Assembly (NCBI RefSeq): GCF_008710035.1
Contig: NZ_VYKI01000019.1
Span: forward strand, 1-64,000
Reading direction: 5' to 3'
DNA length: 64,000 bases
Source of the DNA: Stenotrophomonas cyclobalanopsidis
Lineage (GTDB): Bacteria > Pseudomonadota > Gammaproteobacteria > Xanthomonadales > Xanthomonadaceae
Below are positions 25,219 to 43,445 of the stretch, in pieces; position 1 is the stretch's first letter, and each line of letters begins with the position of its first letter. The position numbers were made by a program, and so were the translations under genes. The notes under the pieces are model-generated. The model made no database searches and was not told where the DNA came from. It saw only the letters and a program-made list of their open reading frames with translations.

Positions 25219-26028
25219 TCAGGCGTCCAGCGCCTGCCGCAGCGGGGCCAGGAAGACACCGGCGCGCTGGGCAGCCTCCTCGGTCGATCCGGCATCGGCC
25301 AGCGCCGCCACCAGGGCGCTGCCGACCACCACGCCATCGGCCTGGCGGGCCATGGCTGCGGCACTGGCCGCATCCTTGATGCCGAAGCCGGCCACCACCG
25401 GCACGCTGGCGCGTGCACGCAGGGCCTGCAGGCGTGCGCTGGCGGCATCGCTGTCCAGGCGCTCGGAGGCACCGGTGACGCCGGCGAAGCTGACGTAGTA
25501 GAGGTAACCGCGGGCCAGCGCGAGCAGCTTGTCGGCGCGTGCTTCGCTGGTGGTCGGCGAAGCCAGCAGGACCAGCGCCAGGCCGGCCGCATCGAAGGCC
25601 TGCTGGGCTTCACCGGCTTCTTCCGGCGGCAGGTCCACCAGCAGCACGCCGTCCACGCCAGCGCCCACTGCAGCCTCGGCGAAGGCCGCGTAGCCGTGGA
25701 TCTCCACCGGGTTGAGGTAGCCCATCAGCACCACCGGGGTCTGCGCATCGCGCTGGCGGAACTGCGCCACCGCCTGCAGCACGTAGCGGCTGCCGGCACC
25801 GCGGCCCAGCGCGCGCTCGGAACTGCGCTGGATGGTCGGGCCATCGGCCATCGGATCGGAGAACGGCACGCCCAGTTCGATCACATCGGCACCGGCCTCG
25901 ACCAGCGCATGCATGACCGGCACGGTGGCCTCCAGCGACGGGTCGCCAGCGGTGATGAAGGGGATCAGCGCCTTGCGCTGCTGCTCGCGAAGGCGCTGGA
26001 AACAGGCATCGAGTCGGGATACGGACAT
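25219..26028 (-). CDS. trpA: Tryptophan synthase alpha chain
   Basis: Cleaves indole-3-glycerol phosphate to indole and glyceraldehyde-3-phosphate; indole is channelled to TrpB. The 269-residue TIM barrel has FITAGDP, the catalytic Glu in ADVIELGVPFSDPMADGP, the catalytic Asp in GVDGVLLVDLPPEE, and the phosphate loops GFGIKDAASA and GVVVGSALV. It begins one nucleotide after the stop of the lipoprotein gene that separates it from trpB, so all three are one transcript. Confidence 0.97.
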   Translation of the reverse strand: MSVSRLDACFQRLREQQRKALIPFITAGDPSLEATVPVMHALVEAGADVIELGVPFSDPMADGPTIQRSSERALGRGAGSRYVLQAVAQFRQRDAQTPVVLMGYLNPVEIHGYAAFAEAAVGAGVDGVLLVDLPPEEAGEAQQAFDAAGLALVLLASPTTSEARADKLLALARGYLYYVSFAGVTGASERLDSDAASARLQALRARASVPVVAGFGIKDAASAAAMARQADGVVVGSALVAALADAGSTEEAAQRAGVFLAPLRQALDA

Positions 26029-26029
26029 G

Positions 26030-26719
26030 TCAGGTACATCCTTCGATCAGGTCAACGGCGCCGCTGGCGCCCCAGTACATTCGGGAAACGGTGCCGTCGA
26101 CGATCTCCACGCGGATCGCCAGGTCGGAACCGGGGTCCTGCCAGAGCAGGGTCTCGCCGGCCTCGGCATCTTCGCCATAAGGACGCGCGACGGCGCCCCG
26201 GGGCAACAGCTGCTGGGCCTGCGCACGCGGCATGTCCAGGCGCAGGCCGAACGGCCCGAGCTGCACCACCACCTGGCCCGAGTCGTCGATGGGGGCCAGG
26301 TCAAAGCGCACCACGTCGCCCTCCTGCACCATCATCGCCACGCCTTCGGGCAGCGTGCCGCGCTCGTAATACTCACAGCGCCCGGCGGTGGCCTCGCCCA
26401 GCCCGGCCGAGTGCCACTGCGCCTCGCCCTGCAGTTCGCTGAAGGGCTGGCCGATCAGCACGTCGCCGGCATGGTCCAGCGCCACCGACACGACTGCCGG
26501 GGCGGTCTCGTCCTCGACGCTGTCGGCGCGGGTAGCCGCCGGCGCATCCTCGATCGGGCGATGCGCGGCGTCATCATCATTGCTGGCCGGCTGGCGGGCC
26601 GGAGCGATGGCTGCGGGCGACGCCGGCGCGGGTGCCAGCACCGGCGGATCCGGGGGCGTGCAGCCGCCCAGACCGACCGCCAGCACCAGCGCGCCACCGT
26701 GGCGCAGCACGTAGTTCAC
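26030..26719 (-). CDS. Putative lipoprotein encoded between trpB and trpA
   Basis: A 229-residue protein of unknown function. The N-terminus [20 protein letters not shown] is a lipoprotein signal with lipobox LGGC (Cys20), followed by a Pro/Ala-rich linker of about 60 residues and a compact domain of about 140 residues with a repeated pattern of Gln-Leu-Gly-Pro-Phe-Gly and Leu-Leu-Pro-Arg-Gly. There is no membrane segment after the signal. The GTG start overlaps the trpB stop (GTGA), and trpA begins one nucleotide after its stop, so it is translated as part of the trp operon although its product should be in the envelope. I do not recognise the family. Confidence 0.75.
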
Positions 26720-27933
26720 AGCACCAGGCCTTCGCGCGCGGCGATGGTGTGCACGTCCTTGTCACCACGGCCGGACAGGTTGCACAGCACCATCTGGTCG
26801 CGCGGGCGCTCACGCGCCAGCTTGATGGCCTGGGCCAGCGCGTGGCTGGATTCCAGCGCCGGCAGGATGCCCTCGACATGCGCCAGCAGGTGGAAGGCCT
26901 GCAGCGCCTCCTCATCGGTGATGCCGAGGTAGGTGGCACGGCCGCTGTCGGACAGGAAGGCGTGTTCCGGACCGACGCCGGGGTAGTCCAGGCCGGCCGA
27001 CACCGAGTGGGTCTCGATGATCTGGCCATCGTCATCGCACAGCACGTAGGTGCGGTTGCCGTGCAGCACGCCGGGGCGGCCGGCGGCAATCGACGCGGCG
27101 TGGCGACCGGTGTGGATGCCGTCGCCGGCCGCTTCGGCGCCGAATATCTCGACCTCACGGTCGTTGAGGAAGGCATGGAACAGGCCGATGGCATTGCTGC
27201 CACCGCCGACGCAGGCGGTGATCGCATCGGGCAGGCGGCCGTACTCGGCCAGCATCTGCTCGCGCGCTTCGCGGCCGACGATGGCGTTGAAGTCACGCAC
27301 CATGCGCGGGTACGGGTCCGGGCCGGCCACGGTGCCGATGATGTAGAAGGTGTCCTGCACGTTGGTCACCCAGTCGCGCATCGCTTCGTTGAGCGCGTCC
27401 TTCAGGGTGGCCGAGCCGGAGGTGACCGGCACCACCGTCGCGCCCAGCAGCTTCATCCGGTAGACGTTGATCTTCTGCCGCTCGATGTCGGTGGCGCCCA
27501 TGTAGACCACGCATTCCAGCCCCAGGCGCGCGGCGACGGTGGCACTGGCCACGCCGTGCTGGCCCGCACCGGTCTCCGCGATGATGCGCTTCTTGCCCAT
27601 CCGCGCGGCCAGCAGGGCCTGGCCGATGGTGTTGTTGATCTTGTGCGCGCCGGTGTGGTTCAGGTCCTCGCGCTTGAGCAGGATCTGCGCACCGCCGACA
27701 TGGTCGCTCAGGCGCTGGGCGTGATAGATCGGGCTCGGCCGGCCGACGTAATGGGCCAGGTCCTTGTCGTAGGCCAGCTGGAACGCCGGGTCCTGGCGGG
27801 CCTGGTCATAGGCCTGGGCCAGTTCCTGCAGCGGGCCGACCAGGGTTTCGGCGACGAAACTGCCGCCGTAGCGGCCGAAGTGGCCCTGGGCGTCCGGGAA
27901 GGCGTGGTAGTCGGCAATGGGGGAGGCAGACAT
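26716..27933 (-). CDS. trpB: Tryptophan synthase beta chain
   Basis: PLP enzyme joining indole and serine to form tryptophan. The 405-residue protein has the Schiff-base lysine in [14 protein letters not shown] (about Lys98), the [10 protein letters not shown] loop, and the PLP-phosphate motif [10 protein letters not shown]. Length is standard. It is the first gene of the trpB-lipoprotein-trpA group and divergent from the LysR gene at 28031, whose product probably activates it, as TrpI does in Pseudomonas. Confidence 0.97.
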
Positions 27934-27980
27934 GGAAGCGACCGCTGGTTCGAGACAGATTGATACTCTAGCGCACGGAT

Positions 27981-28021
27981 CCTGACCGGAATATCGATAT
28001 TATCTGGCGTATATCGTCAGG
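27981..28021. promoter_or_regulatory. Dyad in the trpB/LysR divergent promoter region
   Basis: The 97-nt gap contains a perfect 12-bp palindrome AATATCGATATT (27990-28001), flanked by CCTGAC (27981-27986) and its complement GTCAGG (28016-28021), with a second ATATC at 28011. The AT-rich dyad stands out in GC-rich DNA and lies next to the LysR-type start, as expected for an autoregulatory TrpI-like binding site. Confidence 0.5.
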
Positions 28022-28030
28022 AAATCTCAC

Positions 28031-28924
28031 ATGAGCACCTCCCTGCTGCCCCCGCTCAACGCCCTGCGCGCCTTCGAGGCCACCGCCCGCCTGGGGGGCG
28101 TGGGCCGCGCCGCCCAGGCCCTGCACGTGACCCACGGTGCGGTGAGCCGGCAGCTGAAGCTGCTGGAGGACCATCTGGGGTTGCCGCTGTTCCAGCGCGC
28201 CGGCCGCGGGCTGCGCCTGACCGAGGCCGGGCAGCGCCTGCACGCGGCCTGCGGCGAGGCCTTCGCCGGCATCGAAGACTGCGTGCGCGAACTGCGCCAG
28301 CCGGCGCGTTCCCCTGCTCTGGTGCTCGGCTGCAGCGGCAGCGTGCTGGCGCGCTGGATGATTCCCCGCCTGCCCGCGCTGCAGGCGGCCCTGCCGGGGG
28401 TGAACCTGCAGTGGTCGGCGCTGGATGGCGCCTTCACCGAAGCACAGGCGGCGCTGGATGCGGTGCTGCTGCTGGCACAGGGGCCGTGGCCGCGGGGCTG
28501 GCAGGTGCGCGAGCTGGCACCGGAACGGGTGGGCGTGGTGGTGGCGCCCTCGCATCCGGCCGCGCAGCGCCTGCGCCATGTACCGCCGGACGCGCTGCTG
28601 CAGGAGACGCTGCTGCACACCAGCTCACGCCCGCAGGCGTGGCCGGCATGGGCGCAGGCGCACGGGCTGGACCCGGCGCGGTTGCAGCTCGGCACCGGCT
28701 TCGAGCACCTGTACTACCTGCTGGAAGCGGCCGTTGCCGGACTGGGGCCGGCGATCGCGCCGGAGCCGCTGGTGGCCGAGGACCTGGCCGCGGGGCGACT
28801 GGTCGCACCGTGGGGCTTCGCCGCGACCGGCGGTTTCTGGGTGCTGGCGCGGCCGGATGGCCCGGCCGACCCGCGCGTGGACGCGTTGGCCGACTGGGCC
28901 ACGGCACGACTACGCGGCGGGTAA
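28031..28924 (+). CDS. LysR-family regulator, TrpI-like
   Basis: A 297-residue LysR-type regulator. The N-terminal helix-turn-helix is ARLGGVGRAAQALHVTHGAVSRQLKLLE, with GLPLFQRAGRGLRLTEAG completing the wing. The effector domain begins near residue 93. It resembles the GcvA/AmpR/TrpI branch (LPPLNALRAFEATARLG). Its position head-to-head with trpB, as with trpI in Pseudomonas, suggests that it activates trpBA in response to indoleglycerol phosphate; that is inference from context. It is convergent with the effector gene at 28965. Confidence 0.88.
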   Translation: MSTSLLPPLNALRAFEATARLGGVGRAAQALHVTHGAVSRQLKLLEDHLGLPLFQRAGRGLRLTEAGQRLHAACGEAFAGIEDCVRELRQPARSPALVLGCSGSVLARWMIPRLPALQAALPGVNLQWSALDGAFTEAQAALDAVLLLAQGPWPRGWQVRELAPERVGVVVAPSHPAAQRLRHVPPDALLQETLLHTSSRPQAWPAWAQAHGLDPARLQLGTGFEHLYYLLEAAVAGLGPAIAPEPLVAEDLAAGRLVAPWGFAATGGFWVLARPDGPADPRVDALADWATARLRGG

Positions 28925-31780: not shown

Positions 31781-32890
31781 TCAGGGGGCGGTGGGTGCGG
31801 CGAGCCGTTGCTGCAGGTCCTCGCGCAGGCGCGACAGCTCGACTTCGGCCTGCTGCCGCTGCTGCATTCCCTCGCGATGGATGCTGCGCACTTCCTCGAC
31901 CGTGGCGATCAGCTGGTCGTGGACGTGGCGCAGCGTGGCCACGTCGATCACGCCGCGCTGGTTGCTGCGCGCGGTATCCACCGAGGCCTGGCGCAGCAGA
32001 TCGGCATTGCGGCGCATCATCTCGTTGGTGGCATCGTCGATGGCGGTGGACAGTTCCGCCGCTGCCTTCTGCTCGCCCAGCGAGAGCTGGATGGCGAACT
32101 GGCGCTTCCACGACGGGATGGTGATCTCGCGCACCGTGTTGAACTTCTCGATCAGCTGCAGCGCATTGGCCTGGATCAGGCGGATCATCGGCAGCGACTG
32201 GTCGGCGGCGTGCTGCATCAACTGCAGGTCGGACACGCGCTTTTCGATCAGGCGGATCGCATTGTCGACCTCGCTCTGGCGGATGCGCTGCTGCGGGTCA
32301 TCACTGCCCTGCCCCGCCAGCTGCTCGGCCTGCAGTTCAGCCAGGCGCTGCTTGCCGGCGGCGGCATACAGGCCCAGCGCGTGGCGCTCCTCACGCACGA
32401 TCTCGTGCATGCGGTCGAACTCGCCCACGCGCTTGCCCATCAGCGCCTGCTGCACGCCAACATCGCCCAGCAGCTGCTCGATCTGCGCATTGGTATCGCT
32501 GAATTTCTGCACCAGCTCGCCCTTGGACACGCGCAGGCGATCGATCAGGCCACCGATGACCGGCACCTTGGAACGCTGGGCGAAGCCATCCAGTTTCAAG
32601 CTGCGCGCGATGCGCACCACTTCGCCGAGCTTGTCGCCGCTGGTATCGAGGTCGCGGTTGCGCACCTGGTCCAGCAGCTGGCTGGAAAACGCGGCGGTGC
32701 GCGACGCGGCTTCGCGGCCGAACACCTGCAGGTTGCCCGGGCGCAGGTCGTCCAGCTCCTTGCGGATCTCGGCGATGCGGGGAAGATCCTCGCGGACCAG
32801 GCCCAGGGCCTGCAGCGCGCCCTCGTCCAGTGCGGAAGGGGTGGCCGGGGTGGGCACGAGGGTGCCGGGGTGCTGGCTGTCCTGGGTCAT
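31781..32890 (-). CDS. TelA-family protein (toxic anion resistance family)
   Basis: A 369-residue, mostly alpha-helical protein of the TelA/KlaA family (tellurite or 'toxic anion' resistance). Family stretches include VPVIGGLIDRLRVSKGELVQKF, LQLMQHAADQSLPMIRLIQANA and FNTVREITIPSWKRQFAIQLSL. No membrane helix or signal peptide, so cytosolic. The molecular function of TelA proteins is not settled; genomic context links them to membrane-stress systems. It is the last gene of the five-gene operon beginning at 41834, 44 nt after the coiled-coil gene. Tellurite resistance in this strain is not implied. Confidence 0.9.
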   Translation of the reverse strand: MTQDSQHPGTLVPTPATPSALDEGALQALGLVREDLPRIAEIRKELDDLRPGNLQVFGREAASRTAAFSSQLLDQVRNRDLDTSGDKLGEVVRIARSLKLDGFAQRSKVPVIGGLIDRLRVSKGELVQKFSDTNAQIEQLLGDVGVQQALMGKRVGEFDRMHEIVREERHALGLYAAAGKQRLAELQAEQLAGQGSDDPQQRIRQSEVDNAIRLIEKRVSDLQLMQHAADQSLPMIRLIQANALQLIEKFNTVREITIPSWKRQFAIQLSLGEQKAAAELSTAIDDATNEMMRRNADLLRQASVDTARSNQRGVIDVATLRHVHDQLIATVEEVRSIHREGMQQRQQAEVELSRLREDLQQRLAAPTAP

Positions 32891-32934
32891 CGGGCAGTCT
32901 CCTTGCAGGTGGGTTAGCGGCAGCGGCGGCCGGC

Positions 32935-33642
32935 TCAGCGCAGTCTAGCCTGAGCCGCCGCGACCTCGTCATCGATCTGTGCGTGCAGCGTGGCCGCCTG
33001 CCCGGCGCGGACCGCGCCGGTGGCGGCCTGCGCGGCCAGTGCGGCCTGCCGCCAGGCCGGCAGCAGGACATCATGGATGCGGGCGAAGCGCTGCAGCAGC
33101 ACCGCGTCCTGTTCCTGCAGCAGCTGCCATTGGCCGGCTTCAATGCGGCGCAGTGCCGCCAGTCGCTGCAGGTGGTCAAGGCGCGGCGCCAGCGCGTCCT
33201 GGCCAGCGCCGTCCAGCGTAGGGCGCCACGCGGCGCCGGCATCCGCCCAGGCGTCCAGTGCCTCGGCGGCCTGCCCTGCGGCGCTGATCGCGGCAGCCCG
33301 CAGGTCCATGTGCTGCTGCAGCTGCTGGGCCTGCTCGCGTGCCTGCAGGGCAAGCACGCCGAGCTGCGACTGCAGCCCGCGGCCCTCGGCTTCGCGCTCG
33401 ACATCGCGGCCGAGCAGGCGGCCCCACCAGCTTTCCTGCCGACGCAGGCGGGCCGGATCGGCCGACTGCAGGGCCAGCGCGATGCGCGCCAGCGCCGCCA
33501 CCAGGCCGTCGCCAGCCGTCGCCGGCAGCGCAGCTTCGCGTGCGGCCAGCGCCTGCAGCAACGGCGCGCCGTACTCGCCCACGCGCGCGACATCGGCCGT
33601 GTCCAGCCGTTGCGGCGTTGGCAGGGGCGCTGCGTCGGTCAC
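32935..33642 (-). CDS. Hypothetical helical protein between TelA and the giant ATPase
   Basis: A 235-residue Ala/Gln/Leu-rich protein with long helical, coiled-coil-prone stretches (AREQAQQLQQHMDLRAAAISAAGQ; AATLHAQIDDEVAAAQARLR) and one Trp-Trp motif ESWWGRLLGRDVE. There is no signal, membrane segment or catalytic motif, and I do not recognise a family. The GTG start overlaps the stop of the giant ATPase gene (GTGA), so synthesis is coupled. It may be an adaptor between the ATPase and TelA, by position only. Confidence 0.8.
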   Translation of the reverse strand: MTDAAPLPTPQRLDTADVARVGEYGAPLLQALAAREAALPATAGDGLVAALARIALALQSADPARLRRQESWWGRLLGRDVEREAEGRGLQSQLGVLALQAREQAQQLQQHMDLRAAAISAAGQAAEALDAWADAGAAWRPTLDGAGQDALAPRLDHLQRLAALRRIEAGQWQLLQEQDAVLLQRFARIHDVLLPAWRQAALAAQAATGAVRAGQAATLHAQIDDEVAAAQARLR

Positions 33643-36600
33643 GGCAGCGGCGGCGGCATCGGTGTGCCGTCAGTGGCATCGGCGGGCAACGACTCGCCAT
33701 AGAAGTGGCGCATCAGCGCCTCATCCAGTGCGCGTTCCTCCGGCGTGCTGGCGCGGCGCACGCGCGGACGGCGCACCGCCGCAGCGTTGCTGCCGGCCGC
33801 GCCCTCGACCTGCTGCCGGGCCCACGCGGCGAATGCGGCCAGGGTCTGCGACACCTGTTCCTGCCGTGCCTGCGAAGCGACCAGAAGCTGCACCAGTGGC
33901 GCCAGCCCGGCCTGCAGGTCATCAGCCAGCGGCGTGGCCGGTGCGCTGGACGCAGCGGTCTGCACCGGCTCCGTTGCCGCCGCGGGTGCAGGCTCTGACG
34001 GTGCAGGCTCTGACGGTGCACGTTCTGCCGGGCGCACGTCGGCCAGGCGCTGCAGCGCGTCCAGCAGTGCCGGCCACGGCGCCGGATCCGCGGCCAGCAC
34101 CGGCGCGGCCGGCGGCAGCTGCAGGGCACTGGCGATATCGGCCAGCTGCGCGACCACGCGCCCACCGACATCACTGTCGTCGGCACCCATGGCCTTGTTG
34201 CGCAGGAAATCACGCTTGATCTGCGCCCAGCGCTGCACCTGTGCCTCATCCAGCACGCCACGCAGCTCGCCCAGCTTCAGCAGGTTCTCTTCGGCACCGG
34301 TGGTCAGCAGCTGCGCTTCGCCCAGGTAGTGGTCGGAAATCAGCTGCTGCAACTCGTCCTCGTTCATCACCGGCGAGATCTTCTCGGCCAGCTTGTTCAT
34401 GTTGCGGTAGCTGCCCTGCAGGCGGAACGGCGGCTCGGTGCGGTAGCGGTCATCCTGCGCGGCGCTGGCGATGTACTGCTGGTTGACCCGGTAGACCACG
34501 TCGCGCACGCGCAGCATGCGCTGCAGGGTGGCGGTGATCTCGTTGACCTCCGCGCCGCTGTAGGCGTGGCTGAGCCCGTTGGTCGACACGTCCTTGCCCA
34601 TCGCACGGTCGACCAGCAGGTACAGGTCGGCCATGTCACGGGTGGCCAGCGGTGCCAGCACCGGGTTGGAGGTCAGGCTGTTTTCGATGTAGCTGAGGGT
34701 GAACGCCGCCTCCATGCCGCCCAGCACGTCGCCGAGGTTGTAGATGTCGGCACGGTTGGCCAGCATGTCCGGAATCTTGAACACCTCGCCCGACTCGGTG
34801 TACGGGTTGCCGGCCATGACCACGCAGAACTTCTTGCCGCGCATGTCGTAGGTACGTGTCTTTCCGCGCCAGACGCCTTCGATACGGCGGGTACCGTCGC
34901 AGAGCGAGATGAATTTCTGCAGGAACTCCGGATGGGTGTGCTGGATGTCATCGACATACAGCATGGTGTTGTTGCCCATCTCCAGGGCCAGGTTGAGCTT
35001 TTCCAGCTCCTGCCGCGAGGTCGCGTCGGGCGCCTGTTCCGGATCCAGCGAGCGCACCTCGTGGCCCAGCGCCGGGCCGTTGATCTTCATGAAGACCAGG
35101 CCGAGCCGGTGCGCCACGTATTCCATCAGCGTGGTCTTACCGTAGCCCGGCGGCGAGATCATCATCAGCAGGCCCATCAGGTCGCTGCGCTTGTTCTCGC
35201 CCACCGTGCCCATCTGCTTGGCCAGGTTGTCGCCGATCACGCCCAGGTAGACATCGTTGATGAGCTTGTTGCGCACGAACGAGGACAGCGGCCGTGCCTT
35301 GAATTCGGACAGGCGCAGGGTCTGCCGCTCGCGGTTGATGATGCCCTGGCGTACCGCCTGGTAGGCATGGAAATCGGGCACGAAGCGCTTCAGGTGGTGC
35401 TGCAGGCGTGCCAGGAAATCATCCAGTGACAGCGACAGCGTGCCGCCGTGGATGCGCGGGTGTTCGCCCAGCAGGCCCGCCACGTCGACCCGCAGCGGTG
35501 CGTCGCTGCCGCGCGTGCGCAGCTGGCGCTGCACCAGCAGCAGCGCCGCGGCCTCGTCGGCATAGCCGGCATGTGCGGCCTGGGCCGGCAGACCGGCCAG
35601 TGCGCGCAGCCATTGCCCGGCCAGCGCCCAGCGCGCGGCCAGCGGCTCCTGTGCACGCTGCAGGGCGCGTTCCAGCGCCTCGCGCTGCCCGGCCTGTTCC
35701 AGCTGCTGGGCCAGCGCATCCAGCAGCGCCTGTGCATGCTTGCTGGTGCTGAACACCGGCTCGCCGTTGATCAGTTCTTCGCCCAGATAGGCGGCCCCCG
35801 CCTCGGCAGCCTCATCGTCGAACGGCAGGGCTTCGGCCTGCGCGAACGCGGCGATGGCTGCCGCCATTTCCGTGCGCAGGGCGCTGCGTCCTTCGTCGGA
35901 GCCGAACAGACGGGCGATGGTCTCCGCACCCGCCTGGCGGCTGGGCCACTGCTTCACCGCGTCCTCGCGCTGCTGCGCGGCCCAGAACAGCAGGGCCAGT
36001 GCGCGCACGCGCGGTTCATGCCGCAGCGCGCCGGCCGACTGCTGCAACGGCAGCAGCGCGCGCAGGATCAGCGCGGCGTCATGGTCGTGGATGCCACGTT
36101 CGTAGCCTTCGCGGTAACGCGGTGCGGCGAACGTGCGCACGCGCTGGTCCAGCGCCTCGGGGCTGGCGACGTCCTGCTGCAGCTGGGCCAGATCCAGGCC
36201 GTCGCGGCCGGCCTGCGCGGCCAGCAGCAGGCTGCCGGCCAGGTACTCGCCGCGGTAGATCGCATCGGATTCCGAATCCAGGGTCACCGGCCAGAACGGC
36301 TTAAGCGCATCCAGTTGCGGATCGTGCAGGGTTTCCAGGAAATCGGTGCCGGTGAGGTGGATGGCCAGCGTGTCGCCACGCGGCAACAAGGTCAGGTCCA
36401 GCGCCTGCGTGTTGACGCTGAAACGATGGCGCGGACCGAGCCGGACCACGTTGCCACCGGCCTCGTACAGATCACTGCGGTCGCGCAGCTGACGCACCGC
36501 TTGGTCGCGCACGCCCTTCAGGCGCGCCTCGATGTCATCGGCCTTGACGTTGTCACGCAGCGTGCGCAGGCGCTCGGCCAGTTCGCGCAGCTTGAGGATC

Positions 36601-39059
36601 AGCGGATCGCCGGCGAAGAACGCGTTGAGTTCATCGGCCGTGGCGAAGCGCTCGGTGCGCTTGGCCAGGCCATCGAGAATGCGGTTGGCCGCGTCGAGCA
36701 CCGAACGCGCCTTGCGCTGGCGGTCATCCAGCAGAGCCTGCTTGTGCGTCTCGAAGGCCTCGACCAGCTCCTCGCGCTTGCTGAGGATGTCGCCGAGGAA
36801 CTGCTCGTGCTCGCCGAACTGGCTTTCCAGCTCTTCCAGCTGCACCAGCAGGCGCGACAGCTGCTCGTCGGCCTTTTCCGGGTCGCTGGCCATCGCCAGC
36901 GCACTGGTGATGGACTGCGAGAACAGGGCGAACTGCGCGGCGAACTGGGCCACGGCCTCGGCCGAACCGAGGGTGCGGCGTCGCTGCTCGGCACGCGTGC
37001 GCGATTGGTTCAGGCGGCCGTACAGCGCGGAAATCGATTCGACCACGCGGGTACGCGCGGTGGCATCGTCCACCTTCAGCCCGGCCATCAGTTCGGACAG
37101 CATGTCCAGATCGCCGGCCATGCCACGCATGCCGTCCAGCTGCTCGTCCAGCTGGCGCGCACTGGCTGCCTGCTGGGCGGCTTCGTCCAGCACCTGCAGG
37201 CGGCTGCCCAGCGGCGCCAGCGCGGCATCGCCGGCGAGGAATTCGCCGGTGGCGGCGCCGACGCGGTCCTGCGCCTGCACCAGTTCGGCGGCCATCGCTT
37301 CGATGCGCGCGGTGTCGATGTAACGCAGCTCGCGGATGGTCAGCAGGCGCCCGCGCAGCGCGGTGATCTCGTTCAGTGCCTCGACGAAGGCCTGTATCTC
37401 GTTCCAGTTCTGCGGCTGCAGCCGGCCCAGCAGGGCCTTGAAGCTGGCCTCCGCCTCGACCATCGCCTGCGCCGACTGCTCGCGGATGGACTGGACCTTC
37501 TCGTATTCGTCCAGCACCGATTCGCCGGTGGCGCTGATCTGCCGCAGCAGCGCCTCGGCGCCGTCGCAGGCCTCGTCGCCCAGCCAGTGGTGGGCGTCGA
37601 ACAGGCGGCGGGTGTCGGCCACCAGGCGCTGGTAGCGCTGCACCGAGACATCCTGGCCGTCGATCTCGCGGGCCAGGTTGAACAGGTTGGAGATGCCGCG
37701 CACCAGCTCGGCATTGCCGATGCGACCCATGAAGGTGTTGCCGGGCGGACGACTCGCGGCGAACTCGTCGCTGCTGAACGGCGTCTGCCAGACCTGCATC
37801 GGGTGGATGCGCGTGGGCTCGGTGCCCTCGGCATGGAACAGCACCATGCGCCCATCCTGCATGAACGCATAGCCGTGGCCGAACACCGGGTTCTGCAGCA
37901 CGCGCTGGATGGTGTTGTAGACGAACAGCGCCGAGCGCCCGCCTTCGCGCTCGTAGAAGATGTACAGCACGTCCTCGCCATTGGGCGAACGGATGCTGCG
38001 CTTGAACTGCATGCCGGCCATCGAGGCATCGAAGGCCTTGTGCTCGCCGCCCTGCAGGTAATAGCCACCGGGGAAGATGACGCCATGGTCTTCGGGCAGC
38101 TGCACGCAGGCCTGGACGATGGCGTCGTTGCGCACGATGTCGCCGGTGAGCGTGTTGTAGATCAGCCCGCGCCAGACGGTCTCGCGGTACGGCAGCACCT
38201 TCAGCAGCAGCAGCGAGCCGACACGGGCGAACTCGAACTGGGCGTCGTCCAGCGACTGCGTGCTGTCCTCCACCGGTTCGCTGTAGATGCCCTGCCCGGT
38301 CTCGGTGTTGTTCTCGACCTTGATGGTCAGGTCGCCACCGGTGGTCTCCACGAACAGGGTGTCGAGGATGTTCAGGTGCGAATGGCGGCCGTTGACCGCG
38401 AGGTCGCGGGTGGCCTTGGTCCATTCGAAGTCGAACGGCGGCGGCAGGGCGATATCGCGTTCGCCGCGCGCATCGAGATAGGTCAGCTCGCCTTCGCGCG
38501 ACAGCGCCCAGCGGAACACGCGCACGTCGCTGCTGCGCTCGCCGATCTGGAACGAGGCCAGCAGCTTGTCGCCGACCACGATCAGCTGCAGCAGGCGCGC
38601 ATGCTTGTAGTAGGCGTACAGCTCGTTGAAGTCGTGCACGAAGCCGGGCTGGTCGAGGAAGCTGCCCTTCAGCTCCAGCGCGGCCACATCGTAGCCGTCC
38701 TTGCCCTGCACCAGCCGGTACAGGCCGAACACATCCTCGATGCGGGTATGGGTCTTGAGCCCGATGTAGACGTTGTAGCCGAACAGCAGGCGGTCAGGCC
38801 CGACCTGGACGATGTCCCGGCCAACGCAGTTGTTCTCGCTGCGGATGCGGAAGCGGCCGATCACCTCCAGCCGGCTGTCACCGAATTCGGCCAGGCGCTG
38901 GCGGTTGAGGGTCTCGGCCAGGGCCTGCAGGCGCTGGCCCTGCTCGCTGAGGCGGCGGCGCAGGACTTCGTAGGCACCGCCCTGGGCGACGGCCAGGTCG
39001 ACGGTGCTGCCGCCGGCCTCCGGCGCGGGGGTTTCGGCGGACGGATGGGTTTCAGACAT
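33639..39059 (-). CDS. Giant AAA+ ATPase with DUF3686-type N-terminus ('DNA repair ATPase')
   Basis: An 1806-residue cytosolic protein. The N-terminal 450 residues form a beta-rich region of the DUF3686 type (LEVIGRFRIRSENNCVGRDIVQ, FGYNVYIGLKTHTRIEDVFGLY). About 450-850 is predicted coiled coil. An AAA+ module follows, with Walker A SPPGYGKTT near residue 1305 and Walker B MLYVDDIQ near 1368, then sensor-like VVMAGNPYTESGEVFKIPDMLANR. A long helical C-terminal part ends in a low-complexity Ala/Pro segment. Databases call relatives 'DNA repair ATPase', but I see no nuclease or DNA-binding motif. It lies between a flotillin gene and a coiled-coil gene, which suggests membrane-linked work. Confidence 0.88.
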   Translation of the reverse strand: MSETHPSAETPAPEAGGSTVDLAVAQGGAYEVLRRRLSEQGQRLQALAETLNRQRLAEFGDSRLEVIGRFRIRSENNCVGRDIVQVGPDRLLFGYNVYIGLKTHTRIEDVFGLYRLVQGKDGYDVAALELKGSFLDQPGFVHDFNELYAYYKHARLLQLIVVGDKLLASFQIGERSSDVRVFRWALSREGELTYLDARGERDIALPPPFDFEWTKATRDLAVNGRHSHLNILDTLFVETTGGDLTIKVENNTETGQGIYSEPVEDSTQSLDDAQFEFARVGSLLLLKVLPYRETVWRGLIYNTLTGDIVRNDAIVQACVQLPEDHGVIFPGGYYLQGGEHKAFDASMAGMQFKRSIRSPNGEDVLYIFYEREGGRSALFVYNTIQRVLQNPVFGHGYAFMQDGRMVLFHAEGTEPTRIHPMQVWQTPFSSDEFAASRPPGNTFMGRIGNAELVRGISNLFNLAREIDGQDVSVQRYQRLVADTRRLFDAHHWLGDEACDGAEALLRQISATGESVLDEYEKVQSIREQSAQAMVEAEASFKALLGRLQPQNWNEIQAFVEALNEITALRGRLLTIRELRYIDTARIEAMAAELVQAQDRVGAATGEFLAGDAALAPLGSRLQVLDEAAQQAASARQLDEQLDGMRGMAGDLDMLSELMAGLKVDDATARTRVVESISALYGRLNQSRTRAEQRRRTLGSAEAVAQFAAQFALFSQSITSALAMASDPEKADEQLSRLLVQLEELESQFGEHEQFLGDILSKREELVEAFETHKQALLDDRQRKARSVLDAANRILDGLAKRTERFATADELNAFFAGDPLILKLRELAERLRTLRDNVKADDIEARLKGVRDQAVRQLRDRSDLYEAGGNVVRLGPRHRFSVNTQALDLTLLPRGDTLAIHLTGTDFLETLHDPQLDALKPFWPVTLDSESDAIYRGEYLAGSLLLAAQAGRDGLDLAQLQQDVASPEALDQRVRTFAAPRYREGYERGIHDHDAALILRALLPLQQSAGALRHEPRVRALALLFWAAQQREDAVKQWPSRQAGAETIARLFGSDEGRSALRTEMAAAIAAFAQAEALPFDDEAAEAGAAYLGEELINGEPVFSTSKHAQALLDALAQQLEQAGQREALERALQRAQEPLAARWALAGQWLRALAGLPAQAAHAGYADEAAALLLVQRQLRTRGSDAPLRVDVAGLLGEHPRIHGGTLSLSLDDFLARLQHHLKRFVPDFHAYQAVRQGIINRERQTLRLSEFKARPLSSFVRNKLINDVYLGVIGDNLAKQMGTVGENKRSDLMGLLMMISPPGYGKTTLMEYVAHRLGLVFMKINGPALGHEVRSLDPEQAPDATSRQELEKLNLALEMGNNTMLYVDDIQHTHPEFLQKFISLCDGTRRIEGVWRGKTRTYDMRGKKFCVVMAGNPYTESGEVFKIPDMLANRADIYNLGDVLGGMEAAFTLSYIENSLTSNPVLAPLATRDMADLYLLVDRAMGKDVSTNGLSHAYSGAEVNEITATLQRMLRVRDVVYRVNQQYIASAAQDDRYRTEPPFRLQGSYRNMNKLAEKISPVMNEDELQQLISDHYLGEAQLLTTGAEENLLKLGELRGVLDEAQVQRWAQIKRDFLRNKAMGADDSDVGGRVVAQLADIASALQLPPAAPVLAADPAPWPALLDALQRLADVRPAERAPSEPAPSEPAPAAATEPVQTAASSAPATPLADDLQAGLAPLVQLLVASQARQEQVSQTLAAFAAWARQQVEGAAGSNAAAVRRPRVRRASTPEERALDEALMRHFYGESLPADATDGTPMPPPLP

Positions 39060-39115
39060 CAGCAGGCTTCCGGCTCACGGACGGCCGGCCATGGTCGCGG
39101 CCGGCGCGGGCGGAC

Positions 39116-39134
39116 GATGGCCGCAGCGGCCATC
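39116..39134. other. Intra-operon hairpin between flotillin and giant ATPase genes
   Basis: The 85-nt spacer (39060-39144) contains a perfect 8-pair stem GATGGCCG-cag-CGGCCATC and just beside it a second dyad CCGGCC...GGCCGG (39084-39103). There is no T-run. They might set the ratio of flotillin to ATPase by pausing or mRNA processing. Confidence 0.4.
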
Positions 39135-39144
39135 GCCCGGTGCA

Positions 39145-41163
39145 TCAACGGTCGCTGTCGACCAGGGCGGGCGACACGCTCGGCGCCACCTCGGCGTCGC
39201 CGGCGATCTGCCGCGGTGACGGATCGGCCACGGCCACGCCCAGGTAGCGCTGCATCAGCTCCTGCACGATCGGGCTCTTGCCAGCGAAGCCTTCGATCGA
39301 CTTGCCCAGCGACACCGCCTTGACCAGGTTCTCGAACATGCCACCGTCGCCACCGACCAGGTCGATGTCGGCGTTGCGCAGTGCGCTGGCGATGACGTTG
39401 GCGTTCTCGCGCGACACTTCCTTGCCCGCTTCGATGGAGGCCAGCGCCTGCTTCAGGCTGTTGTCCAGCATCATTCGGAACTCTTCGTGGCCACGCGCCT
39501 GGTCGCTCAGCGAAGCGATCGCCTCGAACTTGCGCACCAGGCCCTCGGCTTCGGCCAGCAGCTTCTTCTGCACCACGCCGGCTTCGGCGTTGCCCAGCGA
39601 TTCGGTGGCTGTGGCACGGGCCAGGCCCATCTTCTCCTCGCCCTGGGCCTGGGCCTGCAGGGTCTCGGCCAGCACGCGGGCTTCGTTGCTGCCCTGCTTC
39701 AGGTTGGCTTCGGCCTTGGCTTCGATCACGCGGGCTTCGGCGATGCCGACCTTTTCGATGGCCAGCGCGGAAGCTTCACGCACCTGCGCTTCGGCCAGGC
39801 CCGGCGCGGCCTGTTCGGCACGGAACGCATCGGCCAGCAGGCGCTTTGCCTCGGCCTGCTTGCCGGCCGCTTCGTGCTCGGCCTGGGCCAGGGTGGTCAG
39901 CTCCACCGCGCGGTGTTTGGAGGCGGTCTCGCGGGCCTGCGCTTCCTTCACTTCGCGCACCAGCGATTCCTGCGCCTTGGCTTCGGCTTCCAGGATCAGC
40001 ACCTGCTTCTGGCGGTCGGCCTCGGAGACCTCGCGCACTTCCTTGATGCGCTCTTCTTCCTGGGCCACGGTCTTGTCGATGGAGATGCGTTCGCGGGTAA
40101 TGTTGGCCACGTCCATCTTGCCCTGCTCGACCACCTTGTCGCGCTCCACGCCCTGCAGCTGCACTTCGCGGTCGGTGGTGACCTGCTCCAGCTGGCGCGC
40201 ACGCTCCACGCGCTCGGCTTCGATGGCCACCGCACGCTGGCGGTTCTGTTCGGCCACTTCCACTTCGCGCAGGCGGTTCTGGTCGCGGATCTCGATCAGC
40301 TGCTGTGCTTCGATGCGAGCGTTCTCGGACAGCTGGCGCTGCTCTTCCTGCACCTTGGCAGTCTCGGCTTCCTCGCGGGCGCGGATGGTCTCGATCTCGC
40401 GCTTCTGCCGCGCCTCGGCCTCGGCCTGCTGGCGTTCCAGGGCCAGCAGCGCTTCGCGTGCTTCCACGTTCTTCTTAGTGATGGCGAGCTTCTCGTTCTG
40501 CTCCAACTCGTTGGTCACCACGTTCTGCGCGGCGGTCAGCTCGGTGATCTTGCGGATGCCCTGCGCGTCGAGGATGTTGAACTGGTCCAGCAGCGACTTC
40601 GGGGTCTGTTCCAGGTAATCGATGGCCACGTCTTCCAGCACATAGCCGTTCAGGTCGTTGCCGATGACCGCGATGATCTCATCGCGGAATTCCTGGCGCT
40701 TCTCGAACAGTTCGGTGAAGTCGAACTTCTTGCCGACCGTCTTCAGCGCCTCGGAGAACTTGGCGTTGAACAGCTCATCGACCGCGTGCTTGTCCGACGC
40801 ACGGTCGGCACCGATGGCCTTGGCCACGCGCAGCACGTCGGCCTGGGTTTCGTTCACCCGCAGGTAGAAGGCCACGGCGATGTCGGCGCGCATGTTGTCG
40901 CGGCAGATCAGGCCTTCCTTGCCGCGGCGGTCGATCTGCAGGGTGATCAGGCTGATGCGCATCAGCTCGGCGCGGTACAGCACCGGGATGATCAGCGCAC
41001 CGGTGAAGTGCACCTTGGGCGTGGCGCTCATGTCGTTGACGATCAGGGCCACGCCCTGGTCGACCTTGCGGTAGAACGCCTTGAACAGTCCGGCCAGGCC
41101 CAGCAGCAGGCCTACGACGACGATGATCCCGATCAGGAAGGGGGCCGCGCCAGCGAAACTCAT
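39145..41163 (-). CDS. Flotillin-family (YqiK-like) membrane scaffold protein
   Basis: A 672-residue protein with one N-terminal membrane helix (FLIGIIVVVGLLLGLAGLF), then a band-7/SPFH domain (about 30-220; YRKVDQGVALIVND) and a very long coiled coil (about 225-500, rich in Glu/Ala/Arg), with a C-terminal flotillin region (RNADIDLVGGDGGMFENLVKAV). Flotillins organise membrane microdomains. The ATG overlaps the last base of the upstream stop (TGATG) and the pair corresponds to E. coli yqiJ-yqiK. Here it is joined to an ATPase and TelA. Confidence 0.93.
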   Translation of the reverse strand: MSFAGAAPFLIGIIVVVGLLLGLAGLFKAFYRKVDQGVALIVNDMSATPKVHFTGALIIPVLYRAELMRISLITLQIDRRGKEGLICRDNMRADIAVAFYLRVNETQADVLRVAKAIGADRASDKHAVDELFNAKFSEALKTVGKKFDFTELFEKRQEFRDEIIAVIGNDLNGYVLEDVAIDYLEQTPKSLLDQFNILDAQGIRKITELTAAQNVVTNELEQNEKLAITKKNVEAREALLALERQQAEAEARQKREIETIRAREEAETAKVQEEQRQLSENARIEAQQLIEIRDQNRLREVEVAEQNRQRAVAIEAERVERARQLEQVTTDREVQLQGVERDKVVEQGKMDVANITRERISIDKTVAQEEERIKEVREVSEADRQKQVLILEAEAKAQESLVREVKEAQARETASKHRAVELTTLAQAEHEAAGKQAEAKRLLADAFRAEQAAPGLAEAQVREASALAIEKVGIAEARVIEAKAEANLKQGSNEARVLAETLQAQAQGEEKMGLARATATESLGNAEAGVVQKKLLAEAEGLVRKFEAIASLSDQARGHEEFRMMLDNSLKQALASIEAGKEVSRENANVIASALRNADIDLVGGDGGMFENLVKAVSLGKSIEGFAGKSPIVQELMQRYLGVAVADPSPRQIAGDAEVAPSVSPALVDSDR

Positions 41164-41834
41164 CAGTGATTCTCCTTGTTGCCCGGAAGCAGGTTGTCCT
41201 GGAAATCGAGGGCGACCGCGTCGGCGCGGACCACCCGGTAGTAGTGCTGTTCGGCCACGTGCTCGACCAGCACGATGCGCTCGCCACGCTGCAGTTCGAT
41301 GTCGCTGCGCACCTGCAGGATCAGCCCGGCGCCGCCATCATCGACATTGGCATGGCCGCTGCGGGCGTCCACCCGCGGCGAGGCGACCACGCCCACCCGG
41401 CCCAGCAGGGAGGCCTGCGCGACCGGCTGCAGGCGCTGCAGGAAACTGCGGATGGGCCGCAGCAGCAGTGCGGTGATCGGCACCGCCGGCAGCGGCGCGA
41501 GCACGGCCACGAGCGTGCCGAAGCCCCAGCGCAGCACGTCCGGCAGCGGCAGCAGGATGAAAAGATGGATGAAATAGGTCAGCGCCCAGCCGAAGAACCC
41601 CAGCAGGGTGACCACGACCATGACCGGCACGCCGCCGAGGCCGAAGCGCTGCAGCAGGGCCGACAGGCCGCTGAGGTCGGTGCCGCCGTCCAGCGCACCG
41701 TCGGCGCCGAGGTCGCCGAAGCCGTCATCAACCAGCCCAAATGCGGCAAGCCCCCAATAGACCAGCGAGACCGCCAGCAGGACGCTGTACGGCAGGGTCG
41801 GGTAACCGAACACGACGGTGAGGAATTCCTGCAT
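41163..41834 (-). CDS. YqiJ/NfeD-like membrane protein with OB fold
   Basis: A 223-residue protein with three membrane segments (PYSVLLAVSLVYWGLAAFG; VPVMVVVTLLGFFGWALTYFIHLFILLPL; LVAVLAPLPAVPITALLL) followed by a soluble C-terminal OB-type domain (LGRVGVVASPRVDARSGHANVDDGGAGL, GERIVLVEHVAEQHYYRVV) as in NfeD proteins, the usual partners of flotillins. It heads the operon; a possible promoter lies at 41939-41968. Function is inferred from the partnership only. Confidence 0.88.
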   Translation of the reverse strand: MQEFLTVVFGYPTLPYSVLLAVSLVYWGLAAFGLVDDGFGDLGADGALDGGTDLSGLSALLQRFGLGGVPVMVVVTLLGFFGWALTYFIHLFILLPLPDVLRWGFGTLVAVLAPLPAVPITALLLRPIRSFLQRLQPVAQASLLGRVGVVASPRVDARSGHANVDDGGAGLILQVRSDIELQRGERIVLVEHVAEQHYYRVVRADAVALDFQDNLLPGNKENH

Positions 41835-41938: not shown

Positions 41939-41968
41939 ATCCTATGTGAAGAGGGCGTGCAGGGACAA
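41939..41968 (-). promoter_or_regulatory. Possible promoter of the flotillin-ATPase-TelA operon
   Basis: On the minus strand TTGTCC (41968-41963) and TAGGAT (41944-41939) are separated by 18 nt, about 105 nt before the first start codon. The match is moderate and no alternative sigma-factor signature is evident. Confidence 0.35.
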
Positions 41969-42021: not shown

Positions 42022-42678
42022 TTACTCCAGCACGGTGCAGTCGGCGCTGCGCACTTCCTCGACGAACGTGCGCATCTTGTAGCCGTCCTTGATGCCCGGC
42101 TCGACCTCGATGCCGCTGGACACATCCACGCCCCACGGCAGGGTGGCGAGGATGGCGTCCTTCACGTTTTCCGGGTTGAGCCCGCCGGCCAGCAGGAACG
42201 GGCGGTGCAGGCCGGTCGGAATGCGCGCCCAGTCGAAGGCCACGCCGGTGCCGCCACCGCCGCCCGGGGCGTGGCTGTCGAACAGGAAGCCGGCCGCGCT
42301 CGGGTAACGCAGCTGCAGCGTGCGTGCGTTGACGTCCTCGCGGCCGCCCATGGCGATGGCTTTCAGGTAGGGCATGTTGAAACTGCGGCAGAAGCTCTCG
42401 TCTTCCTCGCCATGGAACTGCAGCAGGGTCGGACGCACGGTGCGCAGCACTTCACGCACCTCTTCCTTGCTGTTGTTGCGGAACAGCGCCACCACGTCGA
42501 CCATCGGTGCGATCGCCTGGCGCATTGCCCGGGCTTCGGCCGGGGCGACCCGGCGGCTGCTTTCACGGGCAAAGATGAAGCCCACCGCGTCCACGCCCAG
42601 TTCGCCGGCCAGGCGCACATCGCCGGCGCGGGTCATGCCACAGAACTTGATGCGGGTACGGTAGTAGGAGCGGCTCAT
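42022..42678 (-). CDS. trpF: Phosphoribosylanthranilate isomerase
   Basis: Third step of tryptophan synthesis from anthranilate. The 218-residue TIM barrel from ATG 42678 has the catalytic Cys in [12 protein letters not shown], the substrate region [13 protein letters not shown], the catalytic Asp in [15 protein letters not shown], and the phosphate loops [10 protein letters not shown] and [16 protein letters not shown]. It overlaps the truA stop by 4 nt (ATGA). In many relatives trpF is close to trpBA; here they are 14 kb apart. Confidence 0.96.
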
Positions 42679-43445
42679 AAGGTGACCTCGGCAGGCAGAT
42701 GCCAGTTGTCGGGGTACAGCGGCCCCAGGAACACCAGCCCCTGCGGAGGTGCGGTAGGGCCGGCAACGGTTCGGTCGCGTCCGGCCAGCAGCTCGGCGAT
42801 CCACTCCACCGGTTTCTCGCCGCTGCCGACCAGGATCAGCGAACCGACGATATTGCGGACCATGTGATGAAGGAATGCATTACCGCGCACCGCCACCTCG
42901 ATGACCTCGCCCTGGCGGCTGACCTGCAGCGACTGCAGCTCACGCCGCGCATGCAGAGCCTGGCAGTGCACCGAGCGGAACGCACTGAAGTCGTTCTCGC
43001 CGAGCAGCGCCTGGCCTGCGGCATGCATGAGGGTCTCGTCCAGCGCCCGTCGTTCCCAGCTGAGGGTCTGCCGGTCCAGCGCCGGGCGCACCTCGCGGTT
43101 GAGCAGGCGGTAGCGATAGCGGCGCGCACGCGCCGAGAAGCGGGCGTGGAAATCATCGGCCACCGGCACGCACCAGCGCACCGCGATTGAACGCGGCAGG
43201 CGGGTGGTGGTTCCCAGCATCCAGGCGCGCGGGTCGCGCACCACGTCGGTATCGAAATGCACGACCTGGCACTGGCCGTGCACGCCCGCATCGGTGCGGC
43301 CGGCGCAGACCACCTGCAGCGGCGCGTCGGCCACCGAGGACAGGGCCTTCTCCAGGCTGGCCTGGACACTGGGTCCGCCCTCGCCCAGGTTCTGCCAGCC
43401 CCTGAAATCGCTGCCGTCGTACTCGACGCCGAGCGCGTAACGCAT
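42675..43445 (-). CDS. truA: tRNA pseudouridine(38-40) synthase
   Basis: Isomerises uridines 38-40 of the tRNA anticodon stem. The 256-residue protein has the catalytic Asp motif [20 protein letters not shown], the N-terminal [16 protein letters not shown] and the C-terminal [17 protein letters not shown], all characteristic of TruA. Length is typical. It is coupled to trpF by a 4-nt overlap, a gene order shared with other gammaproteobacteria. Confidence 0.97.

What the first reader, a model, noticed from the sequence alone, without database searches (positions are those of the whole stretch)
31781..41834. Five-gene operon: NfeD/YqiJ-like, flotillin, 1806-residue AAA+ ATPase, coiled-coil protein and TelA
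All five genes run in one direction with overlaps or short gaps (TGATG at 41163, GTGA at 33642). E. coli has only yqiJ-yqiK. Joining a membrane-microdomain scaffold to a giant AAA+ ATPase and TelA suggests one machine that remodels or senses the membrane under stress, possibly also phage defence. No ter genes are present, so simple tellurite resistance is unlikely. The ATPase and coiled-coil protein have no assigned function.
Basis: partly seen in the sequence, partly recalled or inferred. Interest (0 to 1): 0.78.

Follow-up and report, generated by a model that had tools for sequence, protein, structure and literature searches.

The report
TelA-bearing flotillin/AAA+ membrane-stress operon
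A five-gene unit in Stenotrophomonas joins a widespread, already described membrane-stress machine (YqiJ, flotillin, giant AAA+ ATPase) to two extra proteins, one of them TelA, which may have taken the place of the usual partner PspA, and so gives the poorly understood TelA family a testable job.

Summary
In detail: five same-strand genes with the stated overlaps. Within the genus (Stenotrophomonas) they behave as a block: of 61 genomes 36 have the ATPase and 35 TelA, in the same genomes about 6 kb apart; the one mismatch is a contig end. The block has two parts. The YqiJ-flotillin-ATPase core is widespread and was described with CesT/Tir-PspA of the phage-shock response (Ravi et al. 2024). 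The coiled-coil gene plus TelA is a later addition: 18 of 80 related loci, and one clade of 17 among 44 Xanthomonadaceae loci. In that clade PspA is strongly diverged (14) or not found (3); in 23 of the other 27 it is ordinary. No convincing PspA was found in 61 genus genomes. Best reading: an envelope-stress machine whose flotillin/ATPase core acts on TelA and the coiled-coil protein instead of PspA. Elsewhere in the class TelA sits directly before another SPFH gene in 12 of 24 places. The replacement idea rests on one evolutionary event, PspA and TelA coexist in most of the clade, and nothing was tested at the bench. Phage defence has no support. New variant of a known kind.

The parts
41163..41834 (-). 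yqiJ-like membrane protein (NfeD2/YuaF type by position), 223 aa
   Evidence: 32% identical to the protein in the same place on pQBR103; E 0.024 to E. coli YqiJ; next to the flotillin in 73 of 80 related loci
39145..41163 (-). YqiK-type flotillin / SPFH protein, 672 aa
   Evidence: 28% to E. coli YqiK, 3e-37; 50% to an annotated SPFH protein; no Pfam match at 0.01; with the ATPase in 76 of 80 loci
33639..39059 (-). AAA+ ATPase with DUF3686, 1806 aa
37587..38930 (-). DUF3686 domain of the ATPase (described as beta-propeller by Ravi et al. 2024; fold not tested here)
   Evidence: Pfam residues 44-491, E 1.8e-192; same place; paper section
34785..35168 (-). AAA+ module of the ATPase: SPPGYGKTT (Walker A), GNPYTESG, ANRAD
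   Evidence: Pfam AAA_5 residues 1298-1425; the quoted residues are the same in the seven aligned sequences
33696..33728 (-). C-terminal tail LDEALMRHFYG of the ATPase, a marker of one TelA+ subgroup and a possible docking peptide (inference)
   Evidence: HFYG-type motif in 13 of 35 TelA+ and 0 of 89 TelA- ATPases; the two locus sets were pooled and five loci occur in both
32935..33642 (-). coiled-coil protein, 235 aa, TelA's constant partner in this clade
   Evidence: 18 of 18 TelA+ loci in the 80-locus set, 17 of 17 TelA+ and 0 of 27 TelA- in the family set; helical model pLDDT 91
31781..32890 (-). TelA (PF05816), 369 aa
   Evidence: helical model pLDDT 73
41939..41968 (-). candidate promoter upstream of yqiJ (-10-like TAGGAT; spaced TTGTCC)
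   Evidence: read by eye from 23 aligned upstream stretches; TTCACATAGGATG-type block shared by 9 of them; the consensus scan found no promoter

Best explanation
The locus encodes an inner-membrane (envelope) stress machine. Shown here: YqiJ, flotillin and the DUF3686 AAA+ ATPase are an old conserved unit that in many relatives stands with YjfI (CesT/Tir) and PspA; in one Xanthomonadaceae clade a coiled-coil gene and TelA were added, apparently once; in that clade PspA is strongly diverged, and it was not found in the window's branch. Inferred: flotillin and YqiJ build a membrane platform; TelA and the coiled-coil protein assemble under the membrane at stressed sites, the job PspA does elsewhere; the ATPase, held at the platform, spends ATP to remodel or take apart that assembly, as Vps4 does with ESCRT-III. 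TelA would be an unrelated stand-in for PspA: analogy, not homology.
For: Co-inheritance in the genus: ATPase 36 of 61, TelA 35 of 61, same genomes. Core: flotillin with the ATPase in 76 of 80 and yqiJ in 73 of 80 loci; PspA in 47, YjfI in 46. Family set of 44 loci: TelA+ 17 (PspA 14, absent 3), TelA- 27 (PspA 23, absent 4); coiled-coil gene in 17 of 17 TelA+ and 0 of 27 TelA-. Pfam PspA score 25-77 bits in the 14, 128-185 in the 23. TelA+ ATPases form one clade, support 1.0. PspA/ATPase distance ratio 2.19-2.96 (n=14) against 0.84-1.51 (n=23). PspA: 0 of 61 genus genomes with PF04012; a profile of mostly diverged PspA found only two partial 20-bit matches. TelA directly before a Band_7_1 SPFH gene in 12 of 24 other class places. 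In B. subtilis xpaC-yaaN (TelA), pspA-ydjGHI and yuaF-yuaG are in one regulon (PMC3498285 passages).
Against: One clade, so one evolutionary event; PspA and TelA coexist in 14 of 17 family TelA+ loci and 6 of 18 in the 80-locus set, so there is no strict exclusion. The whole TelA+ clade evolves faster (flotillin x1.55, YjfI x1.5), not PspA alone. Four family loci have the core with neither PspA nor TelA. In the 80-locus set PspA scores overlap: TelA+ 83-227, TelA- 95-345. TelA and PspA show no profile similarity (E 0.39) and fold search is uninformative. The four weaker TelA proteins of the family sit elsewhere. No experiment.
Confidence: 0.5

Rival explanations
1. TelA and the coiled-coil protein are an added envelope-stress effector that works beside the flotillin/ATPase core and never took over PspA's job; PspA decayed for other reasons, such as faster evolution or a lower need in this clade.
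For: PspA and TelA coexist in 14 of 17 family TelA+ loci; flotillin and YjfI are also faster in the clade; four loci lack PspA without having TelA.
Against: PspA is the fastest of the five proteins compared (x2.52) and PspA/ATPase ratios do not overlap between groups; TelA also pairs with another SPFH family elsewhere.
Confidence: 0.3
2. Phage-defence system.
For: Patchy in the genus (36 of 61); Ter components including TelA are discussed as anti-phage in jumbo phages (PMC7824862 passage).
Against: No PADLOC match but a weak coil-region one; 0 of 50,697 phage records; always one chromosomal site in the genus loci looked at, between trp-region genes; the core is a broad, old partner of PspA.
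Confidence: 0.07
3. Tellurite or toxic-anion resistance operon.
For: The TelA name; a Listeria telA mutant was 2-fold more tellurite-sensitive (PMC12791056 passage).
Against: The same mutant was 4-fold more nisin-sensitive; a TerB profile finds nothing in window 25001-48000. Other ter genes were not searched in the window.
Confidence: 0.04
4. DNA-repair ATPase, as the family name says.
For: Names only; a weak RuvB P-loop match (E 0.0025).
Against: Constant partners are membrane proteins; no nuclease or DNA-binding family reached 0.01 in the protein besides that P-loop.
Confidence: 0.03

Closest known systems
CesT/Tir-PspA + band-7/flotillin + coiled-coil/propeller AAA+ ATPase + YqiJ operons (Ravi et al. 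2024, PMC11237479; one section and passages seen)
   Same: Same three core genes in the same association; [quoted passage not shown]
   Different: Here no PspA was found elsewhere in the genome or in the genus, and a coiled-coil gene and TelA are added; 'TelA' and 'tellur' do not occur in the paper's main text.
XpaC-TelA(-Band_7_1 SPFH) gene sets of other gammaproteobacteria
   Same: A TelA gene preceded by a helical-protein gene and, in 12 of 24 places, followed by an SPFH gene.
   Different: XpaC is PF10112, to which the coiled-coil protein shows no profile similarity (E 0.27); the SPFH protein is Band_7_1, not YqiK type; no DUF3686 ATPase in those stretches.
B. subtilis PspA-YdjGHI (YdjI = SPFH)
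   Same: An SPFH protein serving a sub-membrane helical protein; YdjI is needed to localise PspA (statement in PMC10936438, passage).
   Different: PspA there, TelA here; another SPFH family and no giant ATPase.
E. coli YqiJ-YqiK
   Same: YqiJ/YqiK pair; flotillin 28% identical.
   Different: No ATPase, coiled-coil or TelA gene beside it.
ESCRT-III/Vps4
   Same: Proposed division of labour: membrane assembly plus AAA+ remodeler (inference).
   Different: No homology of TelA to PspA found; the ATPase is not a Vps4 by any match seen.

Membership tests
PSP-linked flotillin/AAA+ operon (Ravi 2024) | membrane protein of band-7/flotillin type | tested here: met
   28% to YqiK over 475 columns including the N-terminal part; 50% to an annotated SPFH protein. 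Note: no Pfam match.
[quoted passage not shown]
   AAA_5 and DUF3686 present; propeller fold not modelled (protein too long for the tool).
PSP-linked flotillin/AAA+ operon (Ravi 2024) | YqiJ/YuaF-type membrane protein | tested here: inconclusive
   Right place and conserved (73 of 80); E 0.024 to E. coli YqiJ.
PSP-linked flotillin/AAA+ operon (Ravi 2024) | CesT/Tir-PspA dyad in the operon | tested here: not met
   No PspA or YjfI match in window 25001-48000; PF04012 0 of 61 genus genomes. So at most the 'abbreviated' form with new additions.
TelA family PF05816 | score over the curated cut-off | tested here: met
   243 bits against cut-off 30.
PspA/ESCRT-III family (for TelA) | sequence-profile similarity to PspA | tested here: not met
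   hhalign TelA-PspA E 0.39; Foldseek lists a Vipp1/PspA-family chain only at rank 36, E 0.25.
XpaC family PF10112 (for the coiled-coil protein) | Pfam or profile match to XpaC | tested here: not met
   not among Pfam matches of 13 members at 0.1; hhalign E 0.27.
TelA family (for the coiled-coil protein) | Pfam match over cut-off or strong profile match | tested here: inconclusive
   TelA match in 2 of 13 members, best 0.0019, under cut-off; hhalign E 9.5e-5, probability 59%, over 44 columns, weaker against wider TelA (E 0.0017).
Ter (tellurite) cassette | ter gene neighbours | tested here: inconclusive
   TerB profile: no match in window 25001-48000; terC, terD, terF not searched.
Known anti-phage systems (PADLOC) | PADLOC model match | tested here: not met
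   only LmuB E 0.0022 in the coil region of the ATPase.

The most novel reading that the evidence does not exclude
TelA is a general, unrelated counterpart of PspA/ESCRT-III: a sub-membrane helical assembler that bacteria plug into SPFH platforms in PspA's place, seen in two settings (YqiK-type flotillin plus DUF3686 AAA+ in Xanthomonadaceae; XpaC-TelA directly before a Band_7_1 SPFH gene in other gammaproteobacteria), with the DUF3686 ATPase as its remodeler.
Probability: 0.3. Interest if true: 0.82.

Novelty: new variant of a known kind. Interest (0 to 1): 0.58.

Why it matters
TelA is a widespread family without an agreed mechanism. If the flotillin/AAA+ machine can switch from PspA to TelA, TelA gains a concrete hypothesis (sub-membrane stress assembly, client of an ATPase), and the idea of ESCRT-like membrane remodelling in bacteria gains a second, unrelated building block. 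Stenotrophomonas, with the machine but no detectable PspA, would be a natural place to test it.

Tried and rejected
1) Loss of the PspA membrane helix (alpha-0) in the TelA+ clade, suggested by partial Pfam matches that start at position 24: rejected, most of the sequences still begin with a helix-like stretch such as MxxLxxLFxR.
2) Strict mutual exclusion of PspA and TelA: rejected, 14 of 17 family TelA+ loci and 6 of 18 in the 80-locus set have both (five loci are in both sets).
3) Coiled-coil protein = XpaC: no support.
4) Placing TelA or the coiled-coil protein by fold: no Foldseek match at E <= 0.001 (0 of 255 and 0 of 800 listed); the TelA model is only pLDDT 73.
5) ATPase tail as a clean marker of TelA dependence: rejected, the HFYG form is in 13 of 35 TelA+ and other tails end in a similar short motif in both groups.
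6) The first, iterated coiled-coil profile drifted into TelA and was replaced by non-iterated seeds.
7) Promoter and terminator scan: 0 promoters, 4 terminator-like sites, not above shuffles.
8) Alignment A3 held one row in a wrong frame (L039) and was replaced by A5.
9) Literature on the combination: (listings only, capped). DUF3686: 0 papers. None of the listed titles is about TelA with a flotillin/AAA+ operon. Supplements could not be read, so this is no proof of absence from print.
Full report
WHAT IS THERE. The five genes are as described: one strand, from 41834 down to 31781, with a 1-nt overlap (41163), a 4-nt overlap (33639-33642) and gaps of 85 and 44 nt. TelA and the ATPase are clear Pfam members. 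The flotillin and the YqiJ-like protein miss every Pfam model at 0.01, but the flotillin is 28% identical to E. coli YqiK (3e-37) and 50% to an annotated SPFH protein of plasmid pQBR103. YqiJ is only marginally similar to the E. coli protein (E 0.024) and 32% identical to the protein in the same place on pQBR103. The genus is Stenotrophomonas: the contig of same-genus genome G058 has the length of S. maltophilia D457 in the named collection (4,769,156).

ONE UNIT IN THE GENUS. Of 61 genomes, 36 have DUF3686 and 35 TelA over cut-off. They are the same genomes, with the two genes on one contig about 6 kb apart; the one mismatch, G014 (83% complete), has a 5.5-kb contig that ends inside the ATPase gene. 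Nine of nine genus loci covering the region have the five genes in order (in L030 the flotillin reading frame is split). I fetched the trpF region of 19 of the 25 block-minus genomes: none of the five proteins matches there at 1e-5; 18 of the 19 keep genes from both flanks of the window's block and one (L231) only the trpF side. So presence is all or none where I looked.

OLD CORE, LATER ADDITION. With fixed profiles: flotillin in 76 of 80, YqiJ-like in 73, PspA in 47, YjfI in 46, phospholipase-D-like in 28, rhomboid in 22, a small TerB-like ORF in 17, coiled-coil in 18, TelA in 18, the last two in the same 18 loci. Of the loci without flotillin, L078, L092 and L114 begin at or near the ATPase; L108 (Moraxella boevrei) is a true exception. 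The flotillin stands more than 600 nt off in four (L054, L064, L065, L110). In L039 the recognised coiled-coil ORF lies about 5 kb upstream, with a second, overlapping match near TelA. Titles of TelA+ loci are Stenotrophomonas, Xanthomonas, Pseudoxanthomonas, Lysobacter and MAGs. In a phylum sample DUF3686 is in 6 of 299 genomes; the five outside the genus have the core and no match to coiled-coil or TelA in about 20 kb. The core with PspA is described by Ravi et al. 2024 (PMC11237479; [quoted passage not shown] TelA and 'tellur' are not in its main text; supplements were not readable.

THE PSPA-TELA PATTERN. In 197 Xanthomonadaceae genomes 44 have DUF3686. TelA over cut-off is in 21: in 17 it lies about 6 kb from DUF3686; in the other four (G432, G440, G474, G505; 159-180 bits) elsewhere. 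I read the region of all 44 (43 loci and the window). TelA+ 17: coiled-coil in 17, PspA and YjfI in 14, neither in 3 (window, L115, L124). TelA- 27: coiled-coil in 0, PspA and YjfI in 23, neither in 4 (L131-L134). By the Pfam model the 23 score 128-185 bits and the 14 score 25-77. The 17 TelA+ ATPases form one clade, FastTree support 1.0, without a TelA- member. Mean distance to eight outgroup loci, TelA+ over TelA- with PspA: PspA x2.52, flotillin 1.55, YjfI 1.5, ATPase 1.14, YqiJ 1.1; PspA/ATPase ratio 2.19-2.96 (n=14) against 0.84-1.51 (n=23). In the 80-locus set the separation is less clean: PspA profile scores 83-227 in TelA+ (6 loci) and 95-345 in TelA- (41 loci). Five loci are in both sets. 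In the genus PF04012 finds 0 of 61, while it rings in 9 of 14 control genomes; a 13-row PspA profile, mostly of diverged sequences, gives two partial 20-bit matches inside a 663-aa frame in two other genomes and none in the window's. This is one event on the tree: a clear pattern, a weak test. L124 comes from a genus whose other sampled members carry PspA, so transfer between genera is possible.

TELA ELSEWHERE. In a class sample TelA is over cut-off in 25 of 232 genomes, the window's included. I fetched 24 places outside the family (places in G587 and G693:C13 were left out; some stretches are short) and the four odd family ones. Of the 24, an XpaC-type gene (PF10112 in the one scanned) lies directly upstream in 18 and a Band_7_1 SPFH gene (one scanned) directly downstream in 12; the four family ones show neither. 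No PspA, DUF3686 or YqiK-type flotillin match appears in the 28 stretches. Passages: xpaC-yaaN, pspA-ydjGHI and yuaF-yuaG stand in the sigma-W regulon table of B. subtilis (PMC3498285); XpaC-like and telA1 genes are raised in a table of the Lactococcus CesSR study (PMC3139573); a Listeria lmo1967 mutant is more sensitive to nisin (4-fold) and tellurite (2-fold) (PMC12791056); YdjI is said to be required to localise PspA (PMC10936438).

STRUCTURE AND SEQUENCE. AlphaFold2: coiled-coil protein pLDDT 91, short helices, GRLLGRD, then helices 94-142 and 145-234; TelA pLDDT 73, helices 113-193, 199-312 and 317-364. No solved structure matches at E <= 0.001. Profile comparison links the coiled-coil protein to this clade's TelA over 44 columns (E 9.5e-5, probability 59%) against E >= 0.22 in the 11 other pairings run, but less to the wider TelA set (E 0.0017); relatedness is suggestive only. 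The ATPase keeps SPPGYGKTT, GNPYTESG and ANRAD in seven aligned sequences; likeness to MoxR-type ATPases beyond the AAA_5 match is from memory. NfeD2/YuaF typing of YqiJ follows PMC2636767 (passages).

MECHANISM. Shown: composition, order, co-inheritance, one TelA+ clade, PspA divergence and absence. Inferred: membrane platform of YqiJ and flotillin; sub-membrane assembly of TelA and its partner; ATP-driven remodelling. Others already listed TelA among components 'forming sub-membrane structures' (PMC7824862, passage). SPFH deletions in P. aeruginosa PA14 gave no pronounced phenotypes (PMC13086221, passages); whether one of them is this flotillin was not tested. A COG2268 (YqiK-type) knock-out in Shewanella altered iron metabolism and peroxide sensitivity (PMC1468410, title and passages).

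VERDICT. A real, well-conserved unit; a new variant of a known PSP-linked machine, with a testable proposal for TelA. Phage defence is unsupported.

Noticed in passing
L233 (NC_009444.1 86395-103305, plasmid pQBR103): A plasmid carries the core (YqiJ-like, SPFH, 'DNA repair ATPase') directly after DUF2491, DUF350, DUF1190 and glutathionylspermidine synthase genes, so two PSP-linked gene sets stand side by side on a mobile replicon.
   Followed up: partly
L048:9028-9270 and similar ORFs (17 of 80 loci): A small TerB-like or EF-hand-like ORF near the core, often between flotillin and ATPase in Pseudomonas-type loci; the TerB match is under cut-off (E 0.0048) and EF-hand matches are as good.
   Followed up: partly
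L187, L189-L191, L193, L195, L197-L199, L211-L213: TelA directly before a Band_7_1 SPFH gene, 12 of 24 class places, often followed by a further conserved gene; a TelA-SPFH association apart from this operon.
   Followed up: partly
L202, L203, L204: More distant TelA genes preceded by another membrane/coiled-coil gene; the one scanned (L203) has no Pfam match at 0.001.
   Followed up: no
L108: Moraxella boevrei has the ATPase with no flotillin or YqiJ-like match in 10 kb upstream.
   Followed up: no
L131-L134: Four Xanthomonadaceae loci keep the core with neither PspA/YjfI nor TelA.
   Followed up: no
L024:3550-5865: In one relative the ATPase is followed by PAAR, VRR-NUC and TsiV-type genes, a type VI effector/immunity set.
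   Followed up: no
window 42022-42804 and 25219-28924: In the genus the block lies between trpF and further trp-region genes; block-minus genomes keep these flanks.
   Followed up: yes
L058 and L093, about 4.8 kb upstream of the ATPase: Weaker TerB-like matches (81 and 71 bits to the local profile) upstream of the operon.
   Followed up: no
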